Of a DNA stretch of 64,000 nt, positions 600 through 63,848 are shown piece after piece (positions within the stretch are counted from its first letter, which is position 1; the number at the start of each line of letters is the position of its first letter). A program made the translations under genes and the position numbers. The DNA is from Armatimonadota bacterium (GTDB lineage: Bacteria > Armatimonadota > Fimbriimonadia > Fimbriimonadales > Fimbriimonadaceae), in NCBI GenBank assembly GCA_018268355.1, contig JAFDWR010000001.1:477797-541796 (forward strand). The letters are read 5' to 3'. The notes below the pieces were generated by a model. It saw nothing but the letters and a program-made list of their open reading frames with translations, did no database searches and had not been told where the DNA came from.

Positions 600-746
600 T
601 CTGGCAATATTGCCTGTCGATTTTGGAAAGAACCGTTTCAGGTTGAAGTTTTCTTGACGCATACTGAGAACAGGACCGTTGCGTTCTACTGATGCGGGTT
701 CAGCCTGCGAGATTCAATCTCACATTGGAGAGGAGTTATTAATTAC

Positions 747-1919: not shown

Positions 1920-1938
1920 GGCTAGGCGCGTCAACCTT

Positions 1939-1977
1939 GAGGCCCATCTCCTCCACGCGAGGCGATGGGCCTCTTTC
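1939..1977 (+). terminator. Intrinsic terminator of the PEP-CTERM gene
   Basis: GAGGCCCATC and GATGGGCCTC form a 10-bp stem with a 15-base loop, followed by TTTC. It starts 20 bases after the stop codon at 1919 and precedes radC on the same strand. Confidence 0.7.
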
Positions 1978-1996
1978 GTGGTAAACCTTTGCAACC

Positions 1997-2671
1997 ATGT
2001 CGACCAACGGGCTGAGTCCGATCACCTTACGCGTCCGGTCCCAAGGCGTCCGAACGAGTGCCATGTTTGACCTCCTCGCGGTCGGCCTTGCGCGGCGCGA
2101 TTCTGACGTCGATGCGACCGAGGCTTCGGTCCGCAAGTGGATGGAAGGGCTTGGAGGCGTCCGCCGCCTCGTCGACATGAGCCCGCAGGACGTCCAGGAA
2201 GCAGCCGGGCTCGAAGGGTTCGACGCGATCCGCGCGCTCAGCCTGATCGAAGTCGGCCGAAGAGCGAGCATGGTGGGAAAGGGGGAATCCGACGAGGTCC
2301 TGTCTCCTGCCGCGGTGTTTCGGCTCCTCGACCACCTTCGCTATGAAAAGAAGGAGCACTTCGTGGCTGTCCTGCTGGATGCGCGCGGCATGGTCCAGCG
2401 CGTCGCGACGATCCACGTGGGCACCCTCACGATGACCGTCGTCGGGGCAAGGGAAGTCTTCCGTGAGGCGATCCGCGAAGGGGCTTCCAGCATCATCGTC
2501 TCGCACAACCACCCGAGCGGCGACCCCTCGCCGAGTCCCGAAGATCTCGATATGACCGATAAGCTGGTTGAAGTGGGTCGAATGCTCGATATTCCCGTCC
2601 TTGATCATGTGATCATCGGCGAGCGGAGCTTTTTCTCAATGCAGGAGCGAGGTCTCATCCGTGGGTATTGA
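1997..2671 (+). CDS. radC: RadC-family JAB/MPN domain protein
   Basis: A 224-residue RadC homologue. It has an N-terminal helix-hairpin-helix-like segment (about residues 20-95) and a C-terminal JAB1/MPN metalloprotease-like domain (about 102-224). The JAMM zinc-binding motif is intact: H170-N-H172-PSGD-PSPSPED, with the upstream Glu supplied by FREAIREG. RadC proteins were once linked to DNA repair, but their biochemical role is still unclear. The gene overlaps the next one by 11 bases, so the two are probably translated together. The ATG at 1997 sits close behind the terminator at 1939-1977 and no strong Shine-Dalgarno is visible. Confidence 0.93.
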   Translation: MSTNGLSPITLRVRSQGVRTSAMFDLLAVGLARRDSDVDATEASVRKWMEGLGGVRRLVDMSPQDVQEAAGLEGFDAIRALSLIEVGRRASMVGKGESDEVLSPAAVFRLLDHLRYEKKEHFVAVLLDARGMVQRVATIHVGTLTMTVVGAREVFREAIREGASSIIVSHNHPSGDPSPSPEDLDMTDKLVEVGRMLDIPVLDHVIIGERSFFSMQERGLIRGY

Positions 2672-3293
2672 GTTTGATGCCCTCATCGAGGGAGTTCGGC
2701 CCGAGCTGGAGGCGATGCACGCCGCCCGCGAAAAGGGGCTCGCGACCTGTCGCCAGATCATCCAGAACGCCTCCAAGTCGATCCGTGCCGGCCACCGGCG
2801 CGAGTTTGACAAGGCACGGGAATTCCTCCAGGCAAGCGGGGAAGCGGTGGCCTCCGCGCGGGACGTCCTCGTGGGTTTTCCGTCGCTCCTCCACAAGGGC
2901 TTCTTCGATGACGCGCTGAAGGAGTACGTCGAGGCCTTCGCCTTTCTCAAGATGGTTGAGGAGCACCGACTGGTCTCTGCGGAAGAGCTGAAGGTCGGCG
3001 CGGTGCCTTACCTGCACGGGATGGCCGAGGCAGCTTCCGAGCTACGCAGGACCTGTCTCGACACGATGCGCCATGGCAGCTTCGATGAGGCCCAGGCCCT
3101 CTTCGATCTCATGGACCAGGTGTACGAGGGCTTGATCACTTGCGACTTCCCGGACGGGATGACCGACGGCTTGCGCCGAACCACCGATGCCTTGCGCGCG
3201 GTCGTCGAGCGCACCCGGAGCGACCTGACTCAATCGCTGACCCAGCATGAACTCGTGATCGAGCTTCGGCGCGCTACTCATAAGGAAGGTTAA
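2661..3293 (+). CDS. Translin-family nucleic-acid-binding protein
   Basis: A 210-residue, almost entirely helical protein starting with GTG inside the radC 3' end. Its layout matches the archaeal/bacterial branch of the translin/TRAX family: an N-terminal CRQIIQNASKSIRAGHR helix, the acidic helix DALKEYVEAFAF where TRAX-type proteins place catalytic or metal-binding acids, then ELRRTCLDTMRHG, a DQVYEGLITCDFPDGM segment and the C-terminal LRRTTDALRAVVERTRSDL helix. Eukaryotic translin and TRAX bind single-stranded nucleic acids, and TRAX is an endoribonuclease; function in bacteria is largely unknown. The 11-base overlap with radC suggests a shared role. Its last 20 bases overlap the convergent gene 3274-4317. 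Assignment rests on motif resemblance, not alignment. Confidence 0.78.
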   Translation: MGIEFDALIEGVRPELEAMHAAREKGLATCRQIIQNASKSIRAGHRREFDKAREFLQASGEAVASARDVLVGFPSLLHKGFFDDALKEYVEAFAFLKMVEEHRLVSAEELKVGAVPYLHGMAEAASELRRTCLDTMRHGSFDEAQALFDLMDQVYEGLITCDFPDGMTDGLRRTTDALRAVVERTRSDLTQSLTQHELVIELRRATHKEG

Positions 3294-4317
3294 CCGGCGG
3301 CGTGGGGGCGTCGACCTTCATCCGTGAAAGGTCGCCACGCTTCGCGAGCGCGCCGCATCCCGCCACCGCGATGAACACACAGGCAAAGGCACCGAACATC
3401 GGGATGAAGATGCTCGCATTGAACGAGGAACCTTTGCCAAAAATCGCCTTCATCATGTTCTGAAAGTCGGCGCGGCGAAGGACGATCCAAACAAAGCAGC
3501 AGAGCCACATGGCAAGCAGGGTGAAGCCAGTCACCTTTCGCCCGAGCACCAAGTGGCCAAGTCCAGGTAGGAAAAAGCTGAGCACGCCGGCGATCTTCGC
3601 GTTGGCGATCCGGTCCGACGAGTCGATGAGGAATGAGTCGGACGACATCATTGCCATCTGATCCTCAATCGACATCTTGCCTGCATCGATCCTGACCGCT
3701 ATCGCGGCTTGGAGTCGTTCGACGTTCGGGTCGTTGGGGGCGCGCCGCTTGGCTTCCTCCACACTCGCCGCCGCCTCCTTGACCTTGCCGAGCTCGAGTT
3801 GCAGCTCTGCCATCGCAGTGAGGACGATGGGGGCATCGGGGGCGATTTTGATCGCTTCGTCGAGGTAGAGCTTCCTCGCCGTGTTGTTGCCGCGAAGGCG
3901 TTCGAGGTTGGCGCGGCGAATTTTGTCTTCTGCCTCGCGGATCGCTTCGGGGGTGGCTTCGATCGGCAGGACCTCGCTCTCCGAAGCATCGGGAGCAAGG
4001 CCAAAGCCCGCGATTCGGCGGTGGATGCGCTGGATGCTCACATCGAGGGCATCGCGCATGTCTTCGTCGGTCGATTCGTCGTAGCGGACCTGGAGGCGGT
4101 AAAGCTCCTGTTCGAGGCTCTTCTTTTCATCCTCGCTCAGGGGAGGCAGAGCGGGTTTTTCCGCCTTACCGGCAGGCTTCGCTTCGCCCTGCTCGGCAGG
4201 CGATTCTGATTCCACTCGGATACTCGCGATCTTGAGCCTTAGCGCCGCCTGAATGTCGGGATCGTCGGATTCAGCGAGCTTTTGTTCGAGCCGAGCGATC
4301 TCCTCCCGATAGTCCAT
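3274..4317 (-). CDS. TPR-like membrane protein of unknown function
   Basis: A 347-residue protein when started at the ATG giving MDYREEIARLEQKL. An upstream in-frame codon at 4395 would add 26 residues but lies inside the preceding gene. The N-terminal 90 residues are highly charged coiled coil. Residues of about 135-215 contain a TPR-like helix pair (NLERLRGNNTARKLYLDEA, then LTAMAELQLELGKVKEAAA). Three hydrophobic segments follow: AKIAGVLSFFLPGLGHLVLG, FTLLAMWLCCFVWIVL and ASIFIPMFGAFACVFIAVAG. The PGLGHLVLGR stretch resembles the membrane motif of TM2/DUF6677-type proteins. It starts 5 bases after the stop of the upstream gene, so the two are probably coupled. Function is unknown. Confidence 0.8.
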   Translation of the reverse strand: MDYREEIARLEQKLAESDDPDIQAALRLKIASIRVESESPAEQGEAKPAGKAEKPALPPLSEDEKKSLEQELYRLQVRYDESTDEDMRDALDVSIQRIHRRIAGFGLAPDASESEVLPIEATPEAIREAEDKIRRANLERLRGNNTARKLYLDEAIKIAPDAPIVLTAMAELQLELGKVKEAAASVEEAKRRAPNDPNVERLQAAIAVRIDAGKMSIEDQMAMMSSDSFLIDSSDRIANAKIAGVLSFFLPGLGHLVLGRKVTGFTLLAMWLCCFVWIVLRRADFQNMMKAIFGKGSSFNASIFIPMFGAFACVFIAVAGCGALAKRGDLSRMKVDAPTPPVNLPYE

Positions 4318-22343: not shown

Positions 22344-24059
22344 ATGAATTCTACGAATAATATTAGGACATGGGACTTAGCCTCAATCTTTCCTGATGTC
22401 AAATCGGAGCAACTTCAATCGGCGATCGATCGTCTCGTGGCCGGATCAGAGCGTCTTGAGGCCATGCTCGCCGGTGGTGACGATGCGGTCGCTATCCTGA
22501 ACCTCACCAACGAGCTTGGCGACGTTTACGAAGAGATTTCGACCTTTCTTGGCTGTTCGATGACCGCGAACACGGCGGACGCCGAGGCCCAAGCCGCCCT
22601 CAGCGCATTCGAAAACCGGGCGATCCACTTCCACAAGGTGCGCCAGCTCGTCACGCGATGGATGGCGCAGACCGATTCGCCCGACAAGGGGCACGATTTC
22701 CACTTCAAGAAGGCCAAAGTTGCCGCCGAGCACCTCATGACCGAGCCGGAAGAGGCCCTTGCCGCCGACCTTTCGCCGTCGAGCACCAAGGCTTGGGAGA
22801 AGCTCTACGAATCAGTGAGTAGCCAGGTCATGGTGACCGTCGATGGCGAAGAAATGAGCATCGTCGCCGCTCGCTCGATGGCCACCGACCCCGACCGTGC
22901 CAAGCGCAAGGCGGCCTACGAAGCCGAGCTCGCGGGCTGGAAGACAGTGGAAACGCCTCTTGCCGCCTCGATGAACGGCATCAAGGGCGCGGTGCTCACC
23001 CTCAGCGAGCGCCGAGGATGGGGTCACCCGCTTGATCAAGCTTGCTTCCACGCGAACCAGGACCGCGCCACCCTCGATGCGATGATTAGCGCGGCTCGCA
23101 AGGCGTTCCCCGATTTCCGCCGCTATTGGCATGCCAAGGCAAAGCTCCTCGGCGTCTCGAAGCTCGCGTTCTACGATCTTTTTGCACCGGTCGGATCGCT
23201 GCAGCCCTGGTCGTTTGAGGATGGAGCAGCGTTCGTCGAAGAGAAGTTCGGCGAATTCGCTCCCCACATGCGCGAGCTTGCCGCACGGTCGGTTCGCGAG
23301 CGCTGGATCGACATCGACCCGCGGCCAGGCAAGGTCGGCGGTGCGTTCTGCGCCCCGCTACCGAACGGCGACAGCCGTATCTTGCTCAACTTCAAGCCGT
23401 CGTTCTCGTGGGTGAACACCCACGCCCACGAACTCGGCCACGCCTACCACAACCTTTGCCTCCGGGGTCGGACCGCGCTCCAGCGCGACATCCCGATGAC
23501 GCTCGCGGAGACCGCAAGCATTTTCTGCGAGACCTACGTACGGCGCGCAGCGATGGCGAAGCTGGAGGGCAGGGAAGACCGGCTCGCTATGCTCGACGCC
23601 ACCCTCACTGGCGCGGGTCAAACCGTCGTGGACATCACCTCTCGGTTCGACTTCGAGTCGGCGGTCTTTGCCCAGCGGCGCGAGCGCGACCTGAGTGCCG
23701 GTGAGCTTTGCGAGGCGATGCGCCAGGCCCAGCTTGGCACCTACGGCGAAGGGCTCGACACTGAGCAACTGCACCCCTACATGTGGGCCGCCAAGCCGCA
23801 CTACTACTCGTCGGAAAGTTACTACAACTTCCCGTACATGTTCGGCCTGCTCTTTGCGCTCGGACTCTACAACCTGTACACCGTCCAGCCCGAAGGCTTT
23901 GTTGCCAAGTACGACGATCTCCTCAGCCGAACCGGCATGAGCGATGCAGCGACGCTTGCCGCTGAGTTCGGAATGGACATTCGCCAGGAGGCGTTCTGGA
24001 ACGGCTCGCTCGATCAGCTCCGCGCTGACATCGACGAGTTCGTTGCCTTAGTCGGATGA
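22344..24059 (+). CDS. pepF: M3-family oligoendopeptidase (PepF type)
   Basis: A 571-residue zinc oligopeptidase of family M3, likely cytoplasmic, degrading short peptides. The zinc motif is H362-E-L-G-H366 in THAHELGHAYHN; the third ligand is the Glu in LAETASIFCET about 25 residues on. The N-terminal helical PepF domain (about 10-200) and the C-terminal HPYMWAAKPHYYSSESYYNFPYMFG stretch, with substrate-binding His and Tyr residues, are complete. The ATG has no clear Shine-Dalgarno. The stop overlaps the rqcH start as ATGA. It is divergent from an Lrp-type regulator and may be regulated by it. Confidence 0.94.
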   Translation: MNSTNNIRTWDLASIFPDVKSEQLQSAIDRLVAGSERLEAMLAGGDDAVAILNLTNELGDVYEEISTFLGCSMTANTADAEAQAALSAFENRAIHFHKVRQLVTRWMAQTDSPDKGHDFHFKKAKVAAEHLMTEPEEALAADLSPSSTKAWEKLYESVSSQVMVTVDGEEMSIVAARSMATDPDRAKRKAAYEAELAGWKTVETPLAASMNGIKGAVLTLSERRGWGHPLDQACFHANQDRATLDAMISAARKAFPDFRRYWHAKAKLLGVSKLAFYDLFAPVGSLQPWSFEDGAAFVEEKFGEFAPHMRELAARSVRERWIDIDPRPGKVGGAFCAPLPNGDSRILLNFKPSFSWVNTHAHELGHAYHNLCLRGRTALQRDIPMTLAETASIFCETYVRRAAMAKLEGREDRLAMLDATLTGAGQTVVDITSRFDFESAVFAQRRERDLSAGELCEAMRQAQLGTYGEGLDTEQLHPYMWAAKPHYYSSESYYNFPYMFGLLFALGLYNLYTVQPEGFVAKYDDLLSRTGMSDAATLAAEFGMDIRQEAFWNGSLDQLRADIDEFVALVG

Positions 24060-41820: not shown

Positions 41821-42405
41821 ATGAATTCGTTTGTGCCCGCTGTTGTTCTCGAGAATCCGTGGGTTCGATTGGAGCCGTTGAGCCTGGATCACGTGCCCGA
41901 TCTCGCCAAGCTCTATGAACCGGAGACCTGGCAGTTTTTCGTCACGTTTCAACCCAGCGGTCCCGGCGAGGAAGGAATGCGATCCTTTGTCCAGGCTCTT
42001 CTCGACAGTCCGGCCGTGCAAGCCTGGGTGGTGATTGATAAGTCGGACGGCAGGATCGTCGGATGCACGACCTACCTCGACATCCGCCCCGCCCACAAAG
42101 CGGTCGAGATCGGGATGACTTGGTATCACTCGTCGGTGCGCGGGACCAAGGTGAACCCCGCCTGCAAGCTCGCCTTACTGGAGTTTGGCTTCGAGAAGCT
42201 GGGCTGCGTCCGCATCCAGCTCAAGACCGATGGCCGTAACCTCCACAGCCAAGCCGCGATTCGCAAGCTCGGCGCAAAGGAAGAAGGCACCTTGCGCAAG
42301 CACGGGATCATGCCCGACGGCTTCATCCGCGACACCGTGTTCTTCTCGATCCTGCCCGAGGAGTGGCCCGAAGTGCGGGCAAACCTCCTCGCTCGGCTGG
42401 GATAA
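41821..42405 (+). CDS. GNAT-family N-acetyltransferase
   Basis: A 194-residue GNAT protein of the RimJ/RimL-like (Acetyltransf_3) type. VRLEPLSLDHVPDLAKLY is the typical N-terminal strand-helix. The acetyl-CoA region is modified: GMTWYHSSVRGTKVNPACKLALLEFGFEKLG, where RGTKVNPACK stands in for the Q/RxxGxG/A loop. LKTDGRNLHSQAAIRKLGAKEEGTLRKH is the conserved C-terminal block. Such enzymes acetylate amino acids, protein N-termini or small molecules; the substrate is unknown. The ATG at 41821 follows a TTG codon. The next gene starts 9 bases downstream. Confidence 0.9.
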   Translation: MNSFVPAVVLENPWVRLEPLSLDHVPDLAKLYEPETWQFFVTFQPSGPGEEGMRSFVQALLDSPAVQAWVVIDKSDGRIVGCTTYLDIRPAHKAVEIGMTWYHSSVRGTKVNPACKLALLEFGFEKLGCVRIQLKTDGRNLHSQAAIRKLGAKEEGTLRKHGIMPDGFIRDTVFFSILPEEWPEVRANLLARLG

Positions 42406-42413
42406 TCGAGTCG

Positions 42414-43901
42414 ATGTCTGCCTACGACCGACTTCTCGAACTGTACTTGGACCTGAGGGCCCTGGGTGTCGCCCAAAGCATGCTTGGCTGGGATCGCCAG
42501 GTCATGATGCCGACGGGTGGCTCGCAGAGTCGCGGCGAACATCAAGCGCGGCTTGGAAGTCTGGAGCATCGCCTACTCACCTCGGACGAGTTCCGGACCA
42601 CGCTGGAAATGGCAGAGGCTGAAGGCGCGGCAGACGAGGTCCAGGCCGCTAACCTACGAATTCTGCGGCGACGACTCGACATCCAGTCGAAGCTCCCCGC
42701 CTCGCTCATCGAGCGCAAAGCCAAGATCGGTAATGCCACCTACGCGACCTGGCGCACTGCCTGCCCGGCAGGCGACTTTGCGGCAATGGTCCCCGGATTG
42801 ACCGAGCTCTTCGACATTGCCCGCGAGACCTCAGAATTCCTCGGCGGGGGACAGCACGTCTACGATCCGCTCATCAACCAATTTGAAGAGGGCTGCACCT
42901 TTGCCGATGCGGACAACATGTTCCGAACCCTCAAGCCGCGGCTCGTCGAACTCATCCAGCGCATCGCCGCCACCGACCCCATCGACGACCAGCCGATCGC
43001 CAAGGACTTCGACCGGCCCACCTTGCTCGAACTCATGCGACGCACTGTCGCCCAGGTTGGCTTTGACATGAACGCAGGTCGCCTCGACCTTGCGCCGAAC
43101 GCCTTTTGCACGAACATCGGTCACGGCGACACCCGAATGACCACCCGGGCGAGCAACCATCTGCGTGGCATCTTCAGCAGCTCGCTCCACGAGATGGGCC
43201 ACGCGCTCTATGACCAGGGGTCACCCAAGGAGTGGGCACTCATGCCGCTCGACGGGCAGACTTCCCTCGCTCTCCACGAGAGCCAATCCCGCTTCTGGGA
43301 GAACATCGTGGGTCGCTCGCGTGGCTTCTGGACGTGGTTCACGCCGCATCTCCACGCGGCTTTCCCCGAGACTTCGTCGTTCAACGCCGAACAGCTCTGG
43401 CGATTGATCAACAAGGTCGAGCCGGGCTTTATCCGCGTCGGTTCCGACGAGCTGACTTACAACCTCCACATCCTCATCCGGTTTGAGATCGAGGTTGAGA
43501 TCCTTTCACGAAAGCTGGAAGTGAAGGACATGCCCGAAGCCTGGAACGAGAAGATGCGCTCGTATCTCGGCATTGTGCCGCCCCACGCGGGCCTCGGCTG
43601 CATCCAGGACGTCCATTGGACGCGCGGCTCGATCGGCTACTTCCCCACCTATTCGATGGGCAACATGATCGGCGGGCGAATCCTGCGAAGGCTTCAAGCC
43701 GAGTTCCCGAACATGGACGACGACTTTGCGCGCGGCAACTTCGCCGGTGTGCTCGGCTGGCTCCAAACGAACCTGTACCAGAAGGCCCAGCTCAAGGTGC
43801 CGAAGGAGCAGATCCTCGAAGTTTCGGGCAGCCCGCTCGAAACGTCGGCGTGGCTCGATTACGCCGAGGCCAAATTCAGCGACGTCTACGCGCTGGCTTA
43901 G
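42414..43901 (+). CDS. M32-family thermostable carboxypeptidase
   Basis: A 495-residue metallocarboxypeptidase of family M32 (Taq type), probably cytoplasmic. The zinc motif is H259-E-M-G-H263 in SSLHEMGHALYDQG, with the third ligand Glu in LALHESQSRFWEN. Family motifs DTRMTT (D-x-R-x-T) and GCIQDVHW are present. The first residues (MSAYDRLLELYLDLRALGVAQSMLGWDRQV) match the family start, so the ATG at 42414 is preferred to an in-frame upstream start in the GNAT gene. The last 26 bases overlap the convergent hypothetical gene. Confidence 0.95.
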   Translation: MSAYDRLLELYLDLRALGVAQSMLGWDRQVMMPTGGSQSRGEHQARLGSLEHRLLTSDEFRTTLEMAEAEGAADEVQAANLRILRRRLDIQSKLPASLIERKAKIGNATYATWRTACPAGDFAAMVPGLTELFDIARETSEFLGGGQHVYDPLINQFEEGCTFADADNMFRTLKPRLVELIQRIAATDPIDDQPIAKDFDRPTLLELMRRTVAQVGFDMNAGRLDLAPNAFCTNIGHGDTRMTTRASNHLRGIFSSSLHEMGHALYDQGSPKEWALMPLDGQTSLALHESQSRFWENIVGRSRGFWTWFTPHLHAAFPETSSFNAEQLWRLINKVEPGFIRVGSDELTYNLHILIRFEIEVEILSRKLEVKDMPEAWNEKMRSYLGIVPPHAGLGCIQDVHWTRGSIGYFPTYSMGNMIGGRILRRLQAEFPNMDDDFARGNFAGVLGWLQTNLYQKAQLKVPKEQILEVSGSPLETSAWLDYAEAKFSDVYALA

Positions 43902-54473: not shown

Positions 54474-54576
54474 GGATAACAAGATTGTGGACGGAAATCG
54501 GGGCTTCTTGGTCGCGCGTTGGGCGGCGATTTTCGACCTTTGCGGTGTGCCCCGTGCAATGCCCTCCGAGTCTATG

Positions 54577-54582
54577 TATAAT
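54577..54582 (+). promoter_or_regulatory. Candidate -10 element for the liv operon
   Basis: TATAAT at 54577-54582 is preceded by TATG, but no -35 with correct spacing was found. It lies about 47 bases before the livK ATG, within the short gap between divergent dnaE and livK. Confidence 0.5.
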
Positions 54583-54628
54583 CACGGCACTTACGGGGGA
54601 TGATCGTGCCCCTTGGGAGGTGCAAATC

Positions 54629-55927
54629 ATGATGCAGATGCGAAAGCTATGGATCCTTTCTTCGCTCGTCGTGACCGTGGGTGCCCTTGCAGGATGCAAC
54701 GGCGGCGGTAGCGACACGGGAGCCACGACGACGGGTGGAGCAAAACCCTCAGGAACCGGCGGTCCTGCCCCTGAAGGCGGCGGTAGCGCAGGTGGCCGAA
54801 AGATGCCCAGCGCAGCTCCGGTGGAAGCGAGCGGCGACAAGATCAAGATCGGCGTGGTTGCCAGCTTGACCGGTGACCAAAAGCCTTGGGGCGACGACCA
54901 GCTCGCTGGCGCCCAGATCGCGGTTGACGAGTTCAACGCCGCAGGTGGCCTGAACGGCAAGATGGTTGAGATCGTCAAGGGCGACTCGGCCTCCAAGCCG
55001 GAATCGGCCCGAAGCGCAGCCGAAAAGGTGATGTCGGAAGGCGTCATCGGCATTGTTGGCGAGGTCAGCAGCGGCAACACGATTCAGATTGCTAAAGCAG
55101 CCTTTGACAAGGGCATTCCGGTGGTCGCGGTGGGTGCAACCCGAACCGACCTCACCGATGTCGGTGGCCACGTCTTCCGCGTTTGCTACACCGACGACTT
55201 CCAGGGCCCGCTCATGGCGAAGTTCGCCTATGACAAGCTCGGTCTTCGCAACGTTGCCGTCATGACGGACAACAAGCTTCCCTACTCCCAGGGCCTCAGC
55301 GAAAGCTTCAAGGCACAGTTCGAGAAGCTCGGAGGCAAGATCGTGAAGGAATCGTTCTATGAGAGCGGCACGACCCAGTTCAGCGCTCAGCTGACCGAGT
55401 TGAAGAGTGCCAACCCTGAGGGCGTGTTCCTTAGTGGCTACTTCACCGAAGTCGGTCCGATTGCTCAGCAGGCTCGCGCAGCGGGCATCAACGTCCCCAT
55501 GTTTGGTGGAGACGGTTGGGACTCGGAGCAGATCCTCACCAGCGGCGGCGAAGCGATCACCAACAACGGCTACTTCTGCAACCACTACAACAACCAGGAC
55601 AACCGACCGCAGGTCATTGACTTCCTGAAGAAGTGGCGCGCGAAGTACGGCGGCAAGGACCCCGGCACCACGATGGGTGCGCTTGGCTACGATGCCATGG
55701 CGCTCACCCTCGACGCTCTGAAGCGAGCCAAGGGTGCCAACAGCACCGCGCTCCTCAATGCGATCGAAGACACCGTGGGCTTCAAGGGCGTTTCCGGCGA
55801 CATCACCCTTAAGGGAATGAACGGTAACCCTCCGAAGCGCGCCATCGTCGTTCAGGTGACCAAGCTCGGCCCGACCGGCTGGCAGAAGTTCGCCAAGGAC
55901 TACACCCCCGAAGACCTGAAGAAGTAA
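54629..55927 (+). CDS. livK: ABC transporter substrate-binding lipoprotein, branched-chain amino acid type
   Basis: A 432-residue periplasmic-binding protein of the LivJ/LivK (Peripla_BP_6) type. The signal MMQMRKLWILSSLVVTVGALAGC ends in the lipobox ALAGC, so it is lipid-anchored. A Gly/Ser/Pro-rich linker of about 45 residues precedes the two-lobe binding domain (IKIGVVASLTGDQKPWGDDQ, GIVGEVSSGNTIQIAKAAFD, VVAVGATRTDLTDVGGHVFR, FGGDGWDSEQILTSGGEAI). Ligands in this family include branched-chain amino acids, urea, amides and aromatic acids, so the substrate is not fixed. GGGAGG lies 8 bases before the ATG. It heads livKHMG. Confidence 0.92.
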   Translation: MMQMRKLWILSSLVVTVGALAGCNGGGSDTGATTTGGAKPSGTGGPAPEGGGSAGGRKMPSAAPVEASGDKIKIGVVASLTGDQKPWGDDQLAGAQIAVDEFNAAGGLNGKMVEIVKGDSASKPESARSAAEKVMSEGVIGIVGEVSSGNTIQIAKAAFDKGIPVVAVGATRTDLTDVGGHVFRVCYTDDFQGPLMAKFAYDKLGLRNVAVMTDNKLPYSQGLSESFKAQFEKLGGKIVKESFYESGTTQFSAQLTELKSANPEGVFLSGYFTEVGPIAQQARAAGINVPMFGGDGWDSEQILTSGGEAITNNGYFCNHYNNQDNRPQVIDFLKKWRAKYGGKDPGTTMGALGYDAMALTLDALKRAKGANSTALLNAIEDTVGFKGVSGDITLKGMNGNPPKRAIVVQVTKLGPTGWQKFAKDYTPEDLKK

Positions 55928-55928
55928 A

Positions 55929-57107
55929 TTGATCCACTCCTTCACCGACCTACTTGCGGGAGCGTCACTCACGACGCTCCCGCAACAGTTAGCCAGCGGC
56001 ATCTTGCTTGGTGCGATCTATGCCTTGATCGCGCTCGGTTACACGATGGTCTATGGCGTCCTCAAGCTCATCAACTTCGCCCACGGCGAGGTCTATATGC
56101 TTGGGGCTTACACCGCTTTGTTTGTCACCTGGGCTCTCGGCTTCACCCCGAATGCGCCCAACCCACCCGAGGCAAGGGTCTGGATGCTCCTCATCATGCT
56201 GCTCGCCAGCATGACGGTCTGCGCGATCGTTGGCATCCTCATTGAACGCTTCGCCTACCGACCGCTGCGAAACCAACCCCGAATTGCCTCGCTGATCACC
56301 GCGATTGGACTCTCCCTCCTTCTCCAATACGGTGGACAGCTCGTTCTCCCGGTTTCGCCTCCTCCGAGCATCGACTCGAAGGTCAACCCGTTTTCCGATA
56401 ACGTCAAGTTCGTTCTGAAGCAGGGCGATTCGGCCCTTCTGACCCAGGCCGCTGGATTCCAACCCAAGGTGGACCAGGCCCAAGCCGCTTTTGATGCCCA
56501 GCTGAAGAGCGAGAAGAGTCAGTTCGACCTTTCTCCCCGCGGCGAAGAGCTCAAGAAGGCGCTCGAAGACGTCAAGCGCGAGCAAAAGGTGGTTACCGAC
56601 TCGGCAAACGCCTCGAAGGTCGAAATCACGCTTCCCAAGGGCCAGCTGATCATGCTCGGCATGGTGGTGGCGCTGATGGCCGCGCTCACCTACTTGGTCA
56701 TGTTCACCAAGCGCGGACGGGCGATGCGAGCGGTCTCGCTTGACTTCAATGCGTCGTCCCTCATGGGCATCAACGTCGACTCGATTGTCACATTCACCTT
56801 CATCGTGGGTTCGTCGCTCGCTGGTGCGGGCGCAATGATGACGGCGACCTTCTTGCCGGGAACCCAGATCAACACCTATTTTGGCGTTCTCCCCGGAACC
56901 AAGGCCTTCGTAGCGGCGGTTCTTGGCGGTATCGGCAACATCCCCGGCGCGGTGCTTGGCGGCATGCTGATGGGCATTGCCGAGGTCATCGTGATTTGGC
57001 TCGGCTATGACGCCTACAAGGACGCCCTTGCATTTGTCGTCCTCATCGCCGTGCTCATCTTCCGACCTGGTGGACTTCTCGGCTCGGCCAAGGTGGAAAA
57101 GGTCTAA
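55929..57107 (+). CDS. livH: Branched-chain amino acid ABC transporter permease LivH with large insertion
   Basis: A 392-residue LivH-type permease, about 90 residues longer than usual. It starts with TTG at 55929, one base after the livK stop. The core is typical: ASGILLGAIYALIALGYTMVYGVLKLINFAHGE, RNQPRIASLITAIGLSLLLQY and LGGIGNIPGAVLGGMLMGIAEV. Between the third and fourth core membrane segments (about residues 155-232) there is a charged, helix-forming insertion with many Lys, Gln, Glu and Asp residues (KVDQAQAAFDAQLKSEKSQF, EELKKALEDVKREQKVV) that could form a coiled coil. Such a segment is not normally present in LivH. The permease pairs with LivM. Confidence 0.9.
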   Translation: MIHSFTDLLAGASLTTLPQQLASGILLGAIYALIALGYTMVYGVLKLINFAHGEVYMLGAYTALFVTWALGFTPNAPNPPEARVWMLLIMLLASMTVCAIVGILIERFAYRPLRNQPRIASLITAIGLSLLLQYGGQLVLPVSPPPSIDSKVNPFSDNVKFVLKQGDSALLTQAAGFQPKVDQAQAAFDAQLKSEKSQFDLSPRGEELKKALEDVKREQKVVTDSANASKVEITLPKGQLIMLGMVVALMAALTYLVMFTKRGRAMRAVSLDFNASSLMGINVDSIVTFTFIVGSSLAGAGAMMTATFLPGTQINTYFGVLPGTKAFVAAVLGGIGNIPGAVLGGMLMGIAEVIVIWLGYDAYKDALAFVVLIAVLIFRPGGLLGSAKVEKV

Positions 57108-57110
57108 TCC

Positions 57111-58331
57111 ATGGATTCGGTTGCCCTTCGTCGCCTAGGTTTTCGCCTGCTCTGGATTGCGCTTGGCGTTGCCTTCGCCTTCCTCGTCCAGTGGGTCGCG
57201 CTTAGCAGCGGCCAGTTCAACAGCAACGGCCAGCGCCTTTTCTTCCTTGCCGGTCTGTACGTCACGCTGGCGGTCAGCCTTAACCTGATCAATGGCATCA
57301 CGGGCCAGTTCTCGATGGGCCACGCCGCCTTCTATCAGGTCGGCGCCTACACCACCGGTGTCCTTGCTGCGAAGTTCTATAGTGACGGCGCGGGACTTGC
57401 CTCGAAGTACCCGTTGCCCTGGCTGATCGGCATGATGTTCGCGGGCGGTCTGGTTGCCGCTCTCGCGGGATTCATCGTCGGACTTCCCTCCTTGCGACTC
57501 AAGGGCGACTACCTCGCAATTGTCACGCTGGGATTCGGTGAGATCATCCGCATCATCGTCCAGAACCAAAAGTCGCTCGGCGGCTCCTACGGCATGGACG
57601 TGAAGCCAAAGATCGACTTTATCTGGCTCTCAACCCTGCTGGCGATTGCGACGATTGCGATCTCGCGCAACCTCCTGAAGAACGTCCACGGCCTCGCCTT
57701 CCTGGCTGTCCGTGAGGATGAGGTGGCGAGCTCCGCGATGGGTGTTCGGGTCACGCGGATCAAGATTGCCGCCTTCCTGCTCGGTTCCGCGCTCGCGGGT
57801 GCGGCTGGTGCGCTCCTTGCCCACCACGAGACGTTCATCTCGAAGGACACCTTCCCGATGGACCTGAGCTTCATCATCGTCACCATGGTCGTCCTCGGTG
57901 GAACGGGCTCAATCACGGGTTCGACGCTCGCCGCGATCACGCTCTATCTCATTCCCGAGCGAATGCGCGACCTTAAGGACGTCCCCGTGAGCTACGCCGC
58001 CCTCGGCGTCATCATGCTCATCGTCACGGTAGCGTTTGTTCGTCGCACGATGGAAAAGGACTTCTCGAAGCTGCGAACGGTGAAGCTGGTTGCCCCTTGG
58101 TTTGTTAGCATCGTCGTCGTCGCTGTCGGCGGTGCTGCGCTGAAGAACGTTGGCCCCTTGTCGAAGGTCATTGATGGCCAGCAGCTGCGTTTCGTCATCT
58201 TCGCGTTGACCCTGATCACCCTCATGTTGCTGCGACCGCAAGGCATCTTTGCTCACCACGAGTTCAGCCTCCAATGGTTGAAGAAGGTGCTAGCCAGGTT
58301 CACGAAGCGCTCGGGCGAGGTGGCATCATGA
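57111..58331 (+). CDS. livM: Branched-chain amino acid ABC transporter permease LivM
   Basis: A 406-residue LivM-type permease, the second membrane subunit of the transporter. Typical stretches: YVTLAVSLNLINGITGQFSMGHAAFYQVGAY, ADDY-equivalent LRLKGDYLAIVTLGFGEIIRI, GLAFLAVREDEVASSAMGV (the EAA-type loop that docks the ATPase) and VVLGGTGSITGSTLAAI. Ten or so hydrophobic segments are visible. It starts 3 bases after the livH stop and overlaps livG by 4 bases (ATGA). Confidence 0.93.
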   Translation: MDSVALRRLGFRLLWIALGVAFAFLVQWVALSSGQFNSNGQRLFFLAGLYVTLAVSLNLINGITGQFSMGHAAFYQVGAYTTGVLAAKFYSDGAGLASKYPLPWLIGMMFAGGLVAALAGFIVGLPSLRLKGDYLAIVTLGFGEIIRIIVQNQKSLGGSYGMDVKPKIDFIWLSTLLAIATIAISRNLLKNVHGLAFLAVREDEVASSAMGVRVTRIKIAAFLLGSALAGAAGALLAHHETFISKDTFPMDLSFIIVTMVVLGGTGSITGSTLAAITLYLIPERMRDLKDVPVSYAALGVIMLIVTVAFVRRTMEKDFSKLRTVKLVAPWFVSIVVVAVGGAALKNVGPLSKVIDGQQLRFVIFALTLITLMLLRPQGIFAHHEFSLQWLKKVLARFTKRSGEVAS

Positions 58332-59104
58332 GCCTACTCTCGCTCGACAAGGCGACGATTCAGTTCGGTGGTCTCATCGCGGTCAACCAGGTCAGCTTCT
58401 CGCTCGATAAGGGCGACATCTTCGGCCTGATCGGCCCGAACGGTGCCGGGAAGACGACCTGCTTCAACCTCATCACCGGCATCTATGAACCGACCGGTGG
58501 GTCGGTCACGTTCGACGGCAAGGTCATCGCGAAGGCCGGAAAGTCGGCTGGACCCGAGTCCATCGCCAAGATGGGCATCTGCCGCACCTTCCAGAACATC
58601 CGTCTTTACGGTTCGCTCTCCGCGATTGAGAATGTCATGGTGGGCGGCTTCCTCCGTCACCGGACCGGTCTCTTCTCTGCCCTGTTTGACCTCAAGCGTG
58701 CGGCCGATGAGACGGTGGAGCTCCGTGAGGCAGGCATGAAGCTGCTCCAAGCGGTCGGCCTCGACGATGTCGCCGACGTACGAAGCCGCGACCTACCCTA
58801 CGGCAGTCAGCGACGCCTGGAAATCGCCCGCGCGATGGCCACGCAGCCGAAATTGCTCCTTCTCGACGAACCCGCCGCCGGCATGAACCCTCAGGAGAAA
58901 ATGGACCTGATGGAAGTGGTCAGAAGCATTCGCGATCAGTTCGGCATGACCGTTCTCCTCATCGAGCACGACATGCGCTTCGTCATGGGACTCTGCGAGA
59001 AGATCTTTGTGCTCGACCACGGCGAGGAGATCGCCTTTGGACTTCCGGAAGAAGTGCGCGCGAACCCGAAGGTCATCGCCGCCTACCTCGGCGAGGCCCA
59101 TTAG
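58328..59104 (+). CDS. livG: Branched-chain amino acid ABC transporter ATPase LivG
   Basis: A 258-residue ABC ATPase of the LivG type. Walker A is [12 protein letters not shown], the Q-loop is [22 protein letters not shown], the signature is [14 protein letters not shown], Walker B is [15 protein letters not shown], and the H-loop is [22 protein letters not shown]. The C-terminal [22 protein letters not shown] is a LivG hallmark. The start overlaps the livM stop by 4 bases. LivF, the second ATPase normally encoded next, is not present; the next gene is a serpin. Confidence 0.95.
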
Positions 59105-59148: not shown

Positions 59149-60291
59149 ATGGGATTGATCACACCGCTCTTGCTGAATCTGACCATGGCCTCCACCACGT
59201 TGCCGGCGTCGATGAACGAATACACGCACCGTCTGACCAGTGCCGTTCTTGACGAGGTGAAGAAAGGGGACAACGTCGTCATCGCCCCGATCAGCGTCTA
59301 CCTCTGCACGTCGATCATGCTTCAGGGTGCGCGTGGCCAGTCGGTCCAGGACCTGAATCAGATCCTCGGCCTGGGCAAGATGAAGGCGTCCGATTCGGCA
59401 TCCGCGATCGGCGAATTCCTGCGCGACCTTCGGGGAGCCAAGGGAGCAAGTTTTCAGTTCACCAACGCGCTTTGGATCAATTCCAAGTACGGCGTGAAGA
59501 CGCCCAGCCCGGAAATGGAAGCCAGTGTTTTCCCGTTCACCAAGGCCGACGGAGCCCTCGTGAAGCGCGTGAACAGCTGGTGCTCGAAGTCGACGAAGGG
59601 CCGCATTCCGAAGCTGATCGAATCGGTGGAAAAGGACACAAACATGATCCTGACCAACGCGATCACGTTTGATGGCGATTGGGAAGATCCGTTTGAGAAG
59701 CAGTGGACGAAGAAGGAGAACTTCAAGGGCACGCGCGGCGACACCAAGGTCGACATGATGCTCAAGCGGGCGCACTTTGACTATGCCAAGCTGGCGGATG
59801 GCACCCAGGTCCTGAACATGCCGTATGTCGGCAATCGCTACGCGGGGCTCTTCGTGCTGCCTAAGGCCGGAAAGAACACGAACGGCGTCCTCGGCGCATT
59901 GACCACCCCCACCTGGAACAGCTGGCTCGATAAGCTCCAGCACCAGGAGGTCATCGTGCGCGTTCCCAAGGTGAAGCTCGAATCTGAGTTCCGCCTCGAT
60001 CGCGCGCTCGGCCAGGTCGGCTATGGGCCGCTCTATCGCCGCGTGGACCTCTCTGGCTTTGCGAAGGGCCTGGAGCAGCAGCAGATCACCTCGGCGATCC
60101 ACAAGACCTTCCTGAAGATCGATGAGAAGGGCACCGAAGCGGCCGCTGCGACTGCGATGATGATGCGAGCGGGTTCCGCGATGAACCCGGTGGAGCCGCC
60201 GAGCTTCACCGCTGACCGGCCTTACCTGTTCTTCATCTATGACACGAAGACCAAGCTGATCCTCTTCTCGGCGTCCGTCCAGAACCCCTAA
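59149..60291 (+). CDS. Serpin-family protease inhibitor, copy 1
   Basis: A 380-residue serpin. The N-terminal MGLITPLLLNLTMASTTLP is weakly hydrophobic, so export is possible but unclear. The core matches the family: NVVIAPISVYLCTSIMLQGARG (helix B region), FQFTNALWIN, NMILTNAITFDGDWEDPFEK, DTKVDMMLKRAHF, and RPYLFFIYDTKTKLILFSASV at the C-terminus. The reactive-centre loop has the inhibitory hinge KGTEAAAATA, with small residues at P12-P9, so it should insert into sheet A. By normal counting the P1-P1' bond falls near Gly-Ser in MMMRAGSAM, with Arg at P3. AAGAAGG precedes the ATG. A paralogue of the same length follows. Confidence 0.93.
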   Translation: MGLITPLLLNLTMASTTLPASMNEYTHRLTSAVLDEVKKGDNVVIAPISVYLCTSIMLQGARGQSVQDLNQILGLGKMKASDSASAIGEFLRDLRGAKGASFQFTNALWINSKYGVKTPSPEMEASVFPFTKADGALVKRVNSWCSKSTKGRIPKLIESVEKDTNMILTNAITFDGDWEDPFEKQWTKKENFKGTRGDTKVDMMLKRAHFDYAKLADGTQVLNMPYVGNRYAGLFVLPKAGKNTNGVLGALTTPTWNSWLDKLQHQEVIVRVPKVKLESEFRLDRALGQVGYGPLYRRVDLSGFAKGLEQQQITSAIHKTFLKIDEKGTEAAAATAMMMRAGSAMNPVEPPSFTADRPYLFFIYDTKTKLILFSASVQNP

Positions 60292-60300
60292 CGCTTACAT

Positions 60301-60353
60301 GGCCTACCTCCCCCTATGGTGTTCTCATCATCTGGAGAGGTAGGCCTCTCCTT
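60301..60353 (+). terminator. Terminator between the two serpin genes
   Basis: GGCCTACCTC (60301-60310) pairs with GAGGTAGGCC (60337-60346), followed by TCTCCTTTTG. The loop is long (26 bases) and could hold smaller structure. It lies just after the stop of serpin 1, so serpin 2 probably has its own promoter in the 150 bases that follow. Confidence 0.65.
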
Positions 60354-60505
60354 TTGTCATCTGCAACACCGTTCGAGTGCGTGAAGAGGGTGGGCTAAGC
60401 TAACCCCGAACACAGGGCTGATGATTTTGACCGGCTCAAACGACGATACAGGACAAGATGACAACAGGGCCGTACCGGAATTAGCGTTCATGCGTTAGTG
60501 GCAAT

Positions 60506-61648
60506 ATGGGATTGATCACACCGCTACTACTAAACCTCACCATGGCCTCGACAACGCTTCCGTTGTCCATTAATGAATACTCGCACCGTCTGACGGGAGC
60601 CGTTCTCAACGAAGCAAAAAAGGGCGACAACGTGGTGATTGCCCCGATCAGCGTCTACCTTGGTACGTCGCTCATGCTTCAAGGTGCTCGCGGCCAGTCG
60701 GTCCAAGACCTCAACGAGGTTCTCGGCCTCGGAAAATTGAGAGCCTCAGATTCGGCCTCGGTCATCGGCGACCTGCTTCGGGACCTCCGAGAGGCAAAGG
60801 GTGCAAGCTTCCAATTCACGAACGCACTTTGGATTCAATCCAAGTACGACGTAAAGACTCCCAGCCCCGAACTTGAAGCCAGTGTCTTCCCGTTCGCCAA
60901 GCCCGACGGAGCACTCGTCAAGCGCGTCAACGATTGGTGTTCGCTCTCCACCAAGGGGCGAATTCAAAAGCTACTCGACAAGGTCGAGGACGACACGAAC
61001 ATGATCCTGACCAACGCGATCACGTTTGACGGTGATTGGGAGAGCCCCTTCCAAAAAGAGTGGACGAAAAAGGAAACCTTCAAGGGCACGCGAGGCGATA
61101 GCCAGGTCGACATGATGCTCAAGCGCTCGCAATTCGAGTATGCGCAGCTCGTCGACGGGACTCAGGTTCTCAACATGCCCTATGTGGGTAACCGCTACGC
61201 CGGTCTTTTCGTCTTGCCACAGGCTGGAAAGAACCCAAGCGCCGTTCTCGCCAAGCTGGATACACCCACTTGGAACAACTGGCTTGATCGGATGGAACCC
61301 CAGGACCTACTCGTCCGGATCCCGAAGGTCAAGCTGGAATCCGATCTCCAGCTCGACCGGGCACTCGTCCGAATCGGCTACAAGCCCCTCTTCAAGCAAG
61401 TGGATCTCTCCGGATTTGGTCGTGGGCTCGAACAGCAACAAATCACGCACGCCATCCACAAGACGTTCTTGAAGATCGACGAGAAGGGTACCGAGGCCGC
61501 CGCCGCAACGGCAATCAGGATGGTTTCGGGTTCGCCGGGTCCGCGGCAGGAGCCGATTCTCTTCACCGCTGATCGGCCCTACTTGTTCTTCATCTATGAC
61601 ACGAAGACCAAGCTGATCCTCTTCTCGGCTTCGGTCCAGAACCCCTGA
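60506..61648 (+). CDS. Serpin-family protease inhibitor, copy 2
   Basis: A 380-residue serpin, the same length as copy 1 and alike throughout (identical MGLITPLLLNLTMASTTLP start, NMILTNAITFDGDWE, QVDMMLKR, RPYLFFIYDTKTKLILFSASVQNP end). The hinge is again KGTEAAAATA. The loop after it is quite different: IRMVSGSPGPRQEPILFTAD instead of MMMRAGSAMNPVEPPSFTAD, so the target protease is likely different. Codon choice also differs from copy 1 in many places, so the duplication is not recent. No Shine-Dalgarno is seen before the ATG. A bidirectional terminator follows. Confidence 0.93.
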   Translation: MGLITPLLLNLTMASTTLPLSINEYSHRLTGAVLNEAKKGDNVVIAPISVYLGTSLMLQGARGQSVQDLNEVLGLGKLRASDSASVIGDLLRDLREAKGASFQFTNALWIQSKYDVKTPSPELEASVFPFAKPDGALVKRVNDWCSLSTKGRIQKLLDKVEDDTNMILTNAITFDGDWESPFQKEWTKKETFKGTRGDSQVDMMLKRSQFEYAQLVDGTQVLNMPYVGNRYAGLFVLPQAGKNPSAVLAKLDTPTWNNWLDRMEPQDLLVRIPKVKLESDLQLDRALVRIGYKPLFKQVDLSGFGRGLEQQQITHAIHKTFLKIDEKGTEAAAATAIRMVSGSPGPRQEPILFTADRPYLFFIYDTKTKLILFSASVQNP

Positions 61649-61667: not shown

Positions 61668-61704
61668 AAAACTCCCTCGGTCCTGAACGGAACGAGGGAG
61701 TTTT
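61668..61704. terminator. Bidirectional intrinsic terminator
   Basis: AAAACTCCCTCG (61668-61679) and CGAGGGAGTTTT (61693-61704) form a 12-bp stem flanked by A- and T-rich ends on both strands. It lies between convergent serpin 2 and the E1 beta gene. Confidence 0.85.
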
Positions 61705-61725: not shown

Positions 61726-62745
61726 TTAGAACTTGGCGACGCGGAGACCAGCGTTGACGATGTCATCCACGCTCGGGAGGACGTAGCGCTCAAGCGGCTC
61801 CACCCACGGCACCGGAGTGTCGAGGCGGGTCACGCGGACGGGAGGAGCGTCGAGGTACTCGAACGCCAGGTCGCTCATGCGGGCGACGACCTCACCGGCA
61901 AAGCCGCAGGTCATCGGTGCTTCGTTGACCACGACAAGGCGGTTGGTCCGCTTGATCGACTCGAGGATCGTGGCCTCGTCGAGCGGGACCAGGGTGCGAA
62001 GGTCGATGACTTCGGCCTCGATTCCCTGTCCGGCGAGCGTCTCCGCCGCCTGAAGGCAGTGATAGACGTTCTGACCGTAGGTCACGTAGGTGAGGTCCTT
62101 TCCGGGGCGACGAATCGCGGCCTTTCCGAGGGGGACAAGGTAGTCACCTTCAGGCAGGTCTTCGGCGATCTTGGAGTCGCGGTAAAGGTTCTTCACCTCA
62201 TAGAAGATGGTCGGGTTGCCGCTTCGAATCGCCGCCTTGAGCAGGCCCTTGGCGTCCGAAGGGGTCGACGGGCAAACGATCTGGAGTCCGGGCGAGTTCG
62301 CGAACCAAGCCTCGTTCATCTGGCTGTGGTAGAGCGCGCCACCCGAGTAGCCACCGGCGGGACCACGGACGACGATCGGCATGTTGACCTCGCCGGCGGT
62401 TCGGTAGTGGTAGGTCGCCATGTTGTTGACGATCTGGTCGAATCCGCACGAGATGAAGTCGATGAACTGCATTTCGCAGACGACGGTCATGCCGTTGAGC
62501 GCCATACCGACCGCCGAGCCAATGATGGCGGCCTCGCTGATCGGCATATCGACCACGCGGTGGGTGCCGAACTGCTCTTGCAGGCCTTCCGTCACACCAA
62601 ATGCTCCACCCAGGAGACCGACGTCTTCACCCTGGATGATCATCATCGGGTTGCGTTCCATCTCCTCGGTCAGCGCCTCTTTGAGGGCATTGAGGAAGTT
62701 CTTCTTCGTGGCTTTCGCCGTATCGGGAGTTACCGTCGCGCTCAT
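61726..62745 (-). CDS. pdhB: 2-oxoacid (pyruvate-type) dehydrogenase E1 component, beta subunit
   Basis: A 339-residue E1 beta subunit of a pyruvate or branched-chain 2-oxoacid dehydrogenase. Conserved blocks: FLNALKEALTEEMERNPMMIIQGEDVG, FGTHRVVDMPISEAAIIGSAVGMALNG, VCEMQFIDFISCGFDQIVN and RGPAGGYSGGALYHSQ. The C-terminal domain has TYVTYGQNVYHCLQAAETL and IDLRTLVPLDEATI. The ATG at 62745 overlaps the stop of the E1 alpha gene (ATGA). Substrate choice (pyruvate, branched chain or acetoin) cannot be decided from this subunit alone. E2 and E3 are not in view. Confidence 0.92.
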   Translation of the reverse strand: MSATVTPDTAKATKKNFLNALKEALTEEMERNPMMIIQGEDVGLLGGAFGVTEGLQEQFGTHRVVDMPISEAAIIGSAVGMALNGMTVVCEMQFIDFISCGFDQIVNNMATYHYRTAGEVNMPIVVRGPAGGYSGGALYHSQMNEAWFANSPGLQIVCPSTPSDAKGLLKAAIRSGNPTIFYEVKNLYRDSKIAEDLPEGDYLVPLGKAAIRRPGKDLTYVTYGQNVYHCLQAAETLAGQGIEAEVIDLRTLVPLDEATILESIKRTNRLVVVNEAPMTCGFAGEVVARMSDLAFEYLDAPPVRVTRLDTPVPWVEPLERYVLPSVDDIVNAGLRVAKF

Positions 62746-63848
62746 GAAATCTCCTTGAAAACCCACTTGCCGCCTTCTTCGGCGGGGGGCACGGGCGAGG
62801 CGAGAGCAAACTCGATGCCCTCGTTCAAGTATTCGACGACTTCCGGCGGGAAGTCCTCGTTCGTGGTTTGGGCCGAACCCTTACCCTCGGCCATGTAAAG
62901 ACCGGCTTCTTCCTTGCTCAGGTAGCCCCAATCAAGGAGCTTGGCTCGGCAGATCGCAATCGGGTCTCGCTTGCGGCCTTCTTCAACGCCCTGCGTCGGT
63001 CGGTACTTCGCCGCTCGATCGTCGTCGTGGTCGCCGTGGCCATAGGCTCGGAAGGTCTTGCACTCGACAATGCTGGGGCCGTTACCGGCGCGGGAGAAGG
63101 ACACCGCCTCCATCACCTTGTCGTAGACGTCGAAGACATCTTGACCGTCGGCGACGAGGCCGGGGATGCCATAGCCATCGGCTCGGCGAGCGAAGTCTTC
63201 AAGCGAGTACTCCAGGTGGGTCGGCGTTCCGTAAGCCCATTGGTTGTTCTCGATGATCGTGACGACGGGCAGCTTGTGGACCGCGGCATAGTTGATCGCT
63301 TCGTGGAAGACGCCCTGGGCGGTCGAGCCCTCACCATTGTAGGTGACGACGACCGCGTTGCCGCCCTTCATTCGGTCGGCATAGGCCACACCAGCAGCGA
63401 CCGGAATCGTTCCTGCGAGCATCGAGGTCGAGTGGATGATGTTCGCGCTACGGCGGCCGATGTGCGACCAGTTGTCGCGTGCTCGTCCGGGCGAATCCGA
63501 TCGACCCCACACCTGGCTACAGACTTCCTTGATCGACATGCCGATGCGATTCTCATCGCGCCATCGGAACTTCGCGTCCTTCAGGAAGAAGCCAGGCATG
63601 TCGCGGTGGATCGGCGAGATCCAGTCCGTCGATTCAAGGCCATACAAGGAGCCGACAATGACGGCTTCCTGGTTGTGGGAAGAGTAGAGGGTGCCCTTCA
63701 GTCGTCCGCGCTTCTTCTCTTTGATCAGGCGGACGTCGAAGTAACGGGCGAGGAAGAGTTGCTTGAAGATCTCAAGACAATCTTCCTTCGAAAGCAGTTG
63801 GTGCGGTGGTTTATGACCTTCCTTGGCCGAGACCGTCGTTGCGCTCAA
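62742..63848 (-). CDS. pdhA: 2-oxoacid (pyruvate-type) dehydrogenase E1 component, alpha subunit
   Basis: A 368-residue E1 alpha subunit that binds thiamine diphosphate. The TPP motif is VVVTYNGEGSTAQGVFHEAINYAAVHKLPVV, where NGEGST replaces the common GDGxxN start and IENNQWAYGTP ends the region. TLYSSHNQEAVIVGSLYGL and FRAYGHGDHDDD (with the phospho-loop-like His) follow family order. The start is TTG at 63848, preceded by AGGAG. It is co-transcribed with E1 beta by a 4-base overlap. Confidence 0.92.
   Translation of the reverse strand: MSATTVSAKEGHKPPHQLLSKEDCLEIFKQLFLARYFDVRLIKEKKRGRLKGTLYSSHNQEAVIVGSLYGLESTDWISPIHRDMPGFFLKDAKFRWRDENRIGMSIKEVCSQVWGRSDSPGRARDNWSHIGRRSANIIHSTSMLAGTIPVAAGVAYADRMKGGNAVVVTYNGEGSTAQGVFHEAINYAAVHKLPVVTIIENNQWAYGTPTHLEYSLEDFARRADGYGIPGLVADGQDVFDVYDKVMEAVSFSRAGNGPSIVECKTFRAYGHGDHDDDRAAKYRPTQGVEEGRKRDPIAICRAKLLDWGYLSKEEAGLYMAEGKGSAQTTNEDFPPEVVEYLNEGIEFALASPVPPAEEGGKWVFKEIS

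What the first reader, a model, noticed from the sequence alone, without database searches (positions are those of the whole stretch)
59149..61648. Tandem serpins of equal length with divergent reactive loops
Both have the inhibitory hinge KGTEAAAATA and near-identical frameworks, but the residues after it differ (MMMRAGSAM versus IRMVSGSPGPRQ). This is the pattern of duplicated inhibitors tuned to different proteases. Serpins are patchy in bacteria. The window also has exported proteins that might need protection, but no target is evident.
Basis: partly seen in the sequence, partly recalled or inferred. Interest (0 to 1): 0.6.

Follow-up and report, generated by a model that had tools for sequence, protein, structure and literature searches.

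The report
Twin bacterial serpins, diverged bait loops
A Fimbriimonadaceae bacterium carries two side-by-side copies of a protease-inhibitor (serpin) gene whose bait loops have diverged much faster than the rest, and both descend from a single serpin gene long kept next to an amino-acid transporter; it is a well-supported but fairly ordinary case of duplicate-and-specialise.

Summary
Two 380-aa serpins lie head-to-tail at 59149-60291 and 60506-61648 and are the genome's only serpins. They are 79% identical in protein and 76% in DNA, so "near-identical" is too strong. Both have the exact inhibitory hinge EKGTEAAAA. The loop after it differs at 11 of 16 residues against 68 of 364 elsewhere (P=3e-5), and its replacement:silent ratio far exceeds the framework's (P=9e-5). 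Among 54 serpin pairs of similar framework identity this pair has the least similar loops. Loop acceleration therefore holds. "Different proteases" is only inferred: at canonical spacing both copies keep the same P1-P1' bond (Gly342-Ser343), and no biochemistry exists.

All 17 linked serpins fall in one supported clade. Most linked relatives carry a lipobox or anchor, and 11 of 17 have lost a canonical hinge. This genus instead kept the hinge, lacks the lipobox and duplicated the gene. Best reading: exported suicide inhibitors with diverging specificity; targets unknown. New member of a known kind.

The parts
59149..60291 (+). serpin A, 380 aa
   Evidence: PF00079 264 bits; ORF
60506..61648 (+). 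serpin B, 380 aa, tandem paralog of A (79% aa identity)
   Evidence: PF00079 264 bits; alignment
59149..59205 (+). A leader MGLITPLLLNLTMASTTLP: uncharged, hydrophobic, no lipobox; probable export signal
   Evidence: 19/19 residues identical to B despite about 9 silent changes; similar uncharged leaders on this genome's subtilase L083 and trypsin-like L170
60506..60562 (+). B leader, same 19 residues
60124..60156 (+). A hinge, P17-P7 EKGTEAAAATA
   Evidence: exact match to published inhibitory hinge ExGTEAAAA (PMC8233489)
61481..61513 (+). B hinge, identical peptide
60157..60204 (+). A variable reactive loop MMMRAGSAMNPVEPPS (P6 onward; canonical P1-P1' Gly342-Ser343)
61514..61561 (+). B variable reactive loop IRMVSGSPGPRQEPIL (same Gly342-Ser343)
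60301..60346 (+). strong hairpin after A, probable terminator, so B probably has its own promoter
   Evidence: -30 kcal/mol, z -5.0
61668..61704 (.). hairpin flanked by A- and T-tracts between convergent B and pdhB, probable two-way terminator
   Evidence: z -3.8
54485..59104 (+). livJ-livH-livM-livG branched-chain amino-acid ABC transporter; livG stop is 44 bp before serpin A
   Evidence: Pfam; NCBIfam best matches LivG and LivK-type binding protein, below the curated cut-offs
61726..63848 (-). pdhB/pdhA-like genes (named from sequence by me), convergent with serpin B; conserved flank in relatives
   Evidence: ORFs; synteny

Best explanation
A and B are in-paralogs, duplicated within this lineage, of a serpin that has long sat between livG and pdhB in Fimbriimonadaceae. 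Both are kept by purifying selection and have an intact inhibitory hinge, so they most likely act as exported suicide inhibitors: a protease cuts the exposed loop, the loop inserts into sheet A and traps the enzyme. After duplication the scaffold, hinge and leader were conserved while the loop changed rapidly, most likely to widen or split the range of proteases bound; subsite and prime-side preferences change while the canonical P1-P1' Gly-Ser stays. A is probably transcribed with the liv operon and B from its own promoter. Shown: the genes, hinge, selection pattern, synteny and clade. Inferred: export, inhibition, different targets, transcription units. Likely targets are subtilisin- or trypsin-like serine proteases from neighbours or from the cell itself.
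For: Full-length PF00079 and exact hinge. Framework dN/dS about 0.08 in the pair, hence both functional. Loop N:S against body N:S P=9e-5. Lowest loop identity (5/16) of 54 pairs at framework identity of about 0.70 or more; next lowest 6/14. A+B sisters at 100/100. Serpin within 5 kb of livM in 16 of 45 serpin-bearing family genomes, commonly with a 34-46 nt gap to livG. Own genome has two subtilases and at least four trypsin-like (HtrA-type) proteases but no papain-family match.
Against: Within the loop alone pN>pS is not significant (0.50 against 0.31, P=0.25), so positive selection is not separated from relaxed constraint. P1-P1' is the same in both copies at canonical spacing. The leader is not a textbook signal peptide (no basic residue, contains Pro and Asn). 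9-10 of 45 strongly conserved family positions are changed in A/B, e.g. S46A and G375A. The structure prediction failed (pLDDT 44). No expression or biochemical data.
Confidence: 0.6

Rival explanations
1. Both copies inhibit the same protease(s) as a dose-increasing duplication; the loop drifts because only the hinge and the Gly-Ser bond are constrained.
For: P1-P1' Gly342-Ser343 identical in both; pN>pS inside the loop not significant.
Against: Serpin orthologs of similar framework divergence keep 57-100% of the loop in most pairs, so loops are normally constrained; old duplicates kept for dosage alone are uncommon (general knowledge).
Confidence: 0.2
2. A and B are non-inhibitory or becoming so, as in most liv-linked relatives, and serve another role such as binding a ligand.
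For: 11 of 17 liv-linked serpins have a degenerate hinge, against 3 of 26 unlinked ones in the family (P=6e-4, not corrected for relatedness); A/B have several unusual framework residues.
Against: A and B retain the perfect hinge with silent changes in it, i.e. purifying selection on the hinge.
Confidence: 0.1
3. A and B are cytosolic regulators or protectors against the cell's own proteases.
For: No classical signal peptide or lipobox; own subtilases and HtrA-type enzymes exist.
Against: Hydrophobic 19-residue leader conserved without a single replacement; most relatives carry a lipobox or anchor.
Confidence: 0.1

Closest known systems
Lipoprotein/exported serpins of other Fimbriimonadales, e.g. 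G006 (L027), G100 (L061), G013 (L023)
   Same: Serpin by profile, inhibitory-type hinge; G006 also lies between livG and pdhB and in the same clade
   Different: Only 30-34% identical, single copy, mostly with lipobox, usually a shorter loop
Chloropin (Chlorobium limicola; PMC10090351) and miropin/siropins (Group T of PMC8233489)
   Same: Bacterial inhibitory serpins with the ExGTEAAAA-type hinge
   Different: Chloropin has an Arg-Ser P1-P1' (PMC10090351), here Gly-Ser; no close sequence kinship shown, group placement not tested
Tandem serpins with differing loops elsewhere: triple array in G250 (L174), pairs in G066 (L085) and G083 (L086)
   Same: Adjacent paralogs whose loops differ
   Different: 28-59% identical, older or independent events; one partner in G083 and one in G066 has a broken hinge

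Membership tests
Serpin superfamily (PF00079) | Full-length profile match | tested here: met
   A 3-370/370, B 6-370/370, about 264 bits against cut-off 27; phmmer of A to conserpin 2.6e-45
Inhibitory serpin | Hinge P17-P9 ExGTEAAAA (x = E/K/R) | tested here: met
   EKGTEAAAA in both; consensus from PMC8233489
Inhibitory serpin | Native fold with exposed loop | tested here: inconclusive
   AlphaFold2 with only 10 rows gave pLDDT 44
Inhibitory serpin | Covalent, SDS-stable protease complex; stressed-to-relaxed change | not testable with these tools
   needs biochemistry
liv-linked serpin lineage of Fimbriimonadaceae | Position directly after livG and before pdhB | tested here: met
   same order in G006 (one extra reversed gene), G091, G081, G082, G004, G025 (gaps)
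liv-linked serpin lineage of Fimbriimonadaceae | Falls in the clade of liv-linked serpins | tested here: met
   26-row fork holding all 17 linked rows, 98/97; exact place inside it unresolved
Surface lipoprotein serpin | Lipobox cysteine after signal peptide | tested here: not met
   no Cys in the leader of A or B; lipobox read by eye in most relatives
Serpin groups S/T/U of PMC8233489 | Placement in the superfamily tree | not tested
   reference alignment not available

The most novel reading that the evidence does not exclude
Fimbriimonadaceae have a serpin lineage functionally tied to the liv amino-acid transporter (encoded as its last operon gene), which in most genera has turned into a non-inhibitory, serpin-derived lipoprotein aiding amino-acid or peptide capture, while this genus kept soluble inhibitors and split them into two specificities.
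Probability: 0.13. Interest if true: 0.65.

Novelty: new member of a known kind. Interest (0 to 1): 0.4.

Why it matters
Why free-living bacteria keep serpins is an open question (stated in PMC8233489). This pair is a natural experiment: one scaffold, two loops, in a family where the same positional gene ranges from intact inhibitor to hinge-less relic. Loop-swap and protease-profiling assays could say whether bacterial serpin duplicates diversify target range as animal ones do, and the conserved liv linkage suggests a link to amino-acid scavenging that can be tested.

Tried and rejected
Gene conversion at the 3' end (low silent divergence in codons 353-380; Fisher P=0.001 for the chosen stretch) was kept only as a hint, because a scan permutation gives P=0.066. 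Horizontal gain was not favoured: conserved locus and clade. Assembly artefact rejected: the copies are 24% diverged in DNA on one 1.24 Mb contig. NCBIfam gives no serpin subfamily. An unequal-rate claim for B was dropped: the quick tree gave end branches of 0.08 and 0.17, but the careful tree 0.13 and 0.12, and site counts are even. The genome-contig scan found only distant serpins. A few calls failed on wrong coordinates or terms.

Full report
OBSERVATION. ORFs 59149-60291 and 60506-61648 (+) each encode 380 aa, and both match Pfam Serpin over its full length. They are the genome's only serpins. Identity is 79% in protein and 76% in DNA; NG86 dN 0.13, dS 1.24. The hinge EKGTEAAAATA is identical in protein although its codons differ at 7 of 11 positions, so selection holds it at the protein level. 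It equals the published consensus of inhibitory serpins, ExGTEAAAA (PMC8233489).

LOOP. Residues 337-352 read MMMRAGSAMNPVEPPS in A and IRMVSGSPGPRQEPIL in B. They differ at 11/16, against 68/364 elsewhere (Fisher 3e-5), and this is the most diverged 16-residue window in the protein. Loop dN 0.84 and dS 0.41; body dN 0.13 and dS 1.54. The replacement:silent contrast between loop and body has P=9e-5, but pN>pS inside the loop alone is not significant (P=0.25). As a control I compared all serpin pairs in hand: at framework identity of about 0.70 or more (54 pairs, A/B included) the A/B loop identity, 5/16, is the lowest, the next being 6/14 and 7/16, and most pairs lie at 57-100%. The control pairs come mostly from two genera and are not independent. 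So orthologous loops are usually conserved, and the paralogs' loops are exceptional. Counting from P15 = Gly328, the canonical scissile bond is Gly342-Ser343 in both copies. What differs is P6-P2 (apart from Met339) and P2'-P10' (apart from Glu349 and Pro350). A changed target range is therefore plausible but not demonstrated, and primary specificity may be shared. Many relatives read Thr-Ser or Thr-Ala at the same place.

SURROUNDINGS. Upstream is livJHMG, with 44 bp between the livG stop and the A start. Downstream and convergent are pdhB and pdhA. A strong hairpin follows A (z -5.0) and another lies between B and pdhB (z -3.8). I infer that A is read with the liv operon and B separately; no sigma-70 consensus was found in the region, so B's promoter is not located.

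RELATIVES. The assembly lies in a family that contains a genome of exactly 5,231,762 bp in one contig (G062). That is the published length of Fimbriimonas ginsengisoli Gsoil 348 (PMC4072686), so I place the window in Fimbriimonadaceae, Armatimonadota (inference). The nearest serpins in 291 genomes of the phylum are about 34% identical. Comparing livM and serpin positions over 113 genomes of the order, the serpin lies within 5 kb of livM in 16 genomes (12 genera) of 45 serpin-bearing members of the family; a further, diverged one in G003 was found on inspection. The tree holds 17 linked rows: the window gives two, and G103 was not fetched. The usual order is livJ-livH-livM-livG-serpin-<pdhB-<pdhA, with a livG-serpin gap commonly of 34-46 nt (worked out). 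In G107 and G102 the serpin lies between pdhB and livJ instead. Under a random-placement guess this is negligible by chance, although shared ancestry means the cases are not independent. In the careful tree A and B are sisters (100/100) and all 17 linked rows lie in one 26-row group (98/97), with most unlinked family serpins outside it. So: one ancestral linked serpin, some later relocations, and a duplication in this lineage.

FATE OF THE LINKED SERPIN. 11 of 17 linked serpins lack a proper hinge, and some lack most of the loop (G032, G003, G001, G090, G102, G029), against 3 of 26 unlinked family serpins (P=6e-4, not corrected for relatedness; the counts were made by hand from the table, requiring at least 5 of 7 key hinge residues). 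Most carry a lipobox or N-terminal anchor. A and B are exceptions: the leader MGLITPLLLNLTMASTTLP has no Cys and no basic residue. It is identical in both copies despite about 9 silent changes, so it is translated and constrained. Similar uncharged leaders start this genome's subtilase L083 (MLLFGLVALAQ...), the trypsin-like L170 (MPLLATLTCLVALRGG...) and the G077 serpin, so I read it as an export signal; this is not proven.

TARGETS. The genome has two subtilases and at least four trypsin-like (HtrA-type) proteases and no papain-family match. No target can be named.

MECHANISM AND NOVELTY. Best reading: exported suicide inhibitors that have begun to split their target range. Tandem serpins with different loops occur elsewhere in the phylum (a triple array in L174, pairs in L085 and L086), and loop divergence after duplication is well known in animal serpins (general knowledge). 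The pair is a new member of a known kind. The liv-linked lineage and its repeated loss of the hinge is the less expected part; literature searches found no paper on it in the library used, which is not proof of absence.

Noticed in passing
window 54485-59104; L081: The liv operon here, and in the relatives examined, lacks an adjacent livF; the best LivF match in this genome is on another contig (C2:78716-79408). In many relatives the serpin follows livG where livF might be expected.
   Followed up: partly
L055, L158, L145, L143, L053, L056: Serpin-derived proteins at the liv/pdhB locus in which the hinge and most of the reactive loop are missing while the N-terminal part still matches the serpin profile: possible non-inhibitory descendants.
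   Followed up: partly
L174 (G250), approx. 331-4260: Three serpin genes in a row, 43-59% identical, with different loops, elsewhere in the phylum.
   Followed up: partly
window 60205-60291 and 61562-61648: The last 28 codons of the two serpins have unusually few silent differences (5 of 28 degenerate codons against about half elsewhere): possible local gene conversion, not significant by a scan test (P=0.066).
   Followed up: yes
L083, L170, window 59149, L072: Several apparently exported proteins of this family begin with short hydrophobic leaders with no basic residue, which standard signal-peptide rules might miss.
   Followed up: no
window 22344-24059 and 42363-43901: Two metallopeptidase genes (M3 and M32 families) in the same window; not expected serpin targets.
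   Followed up: no
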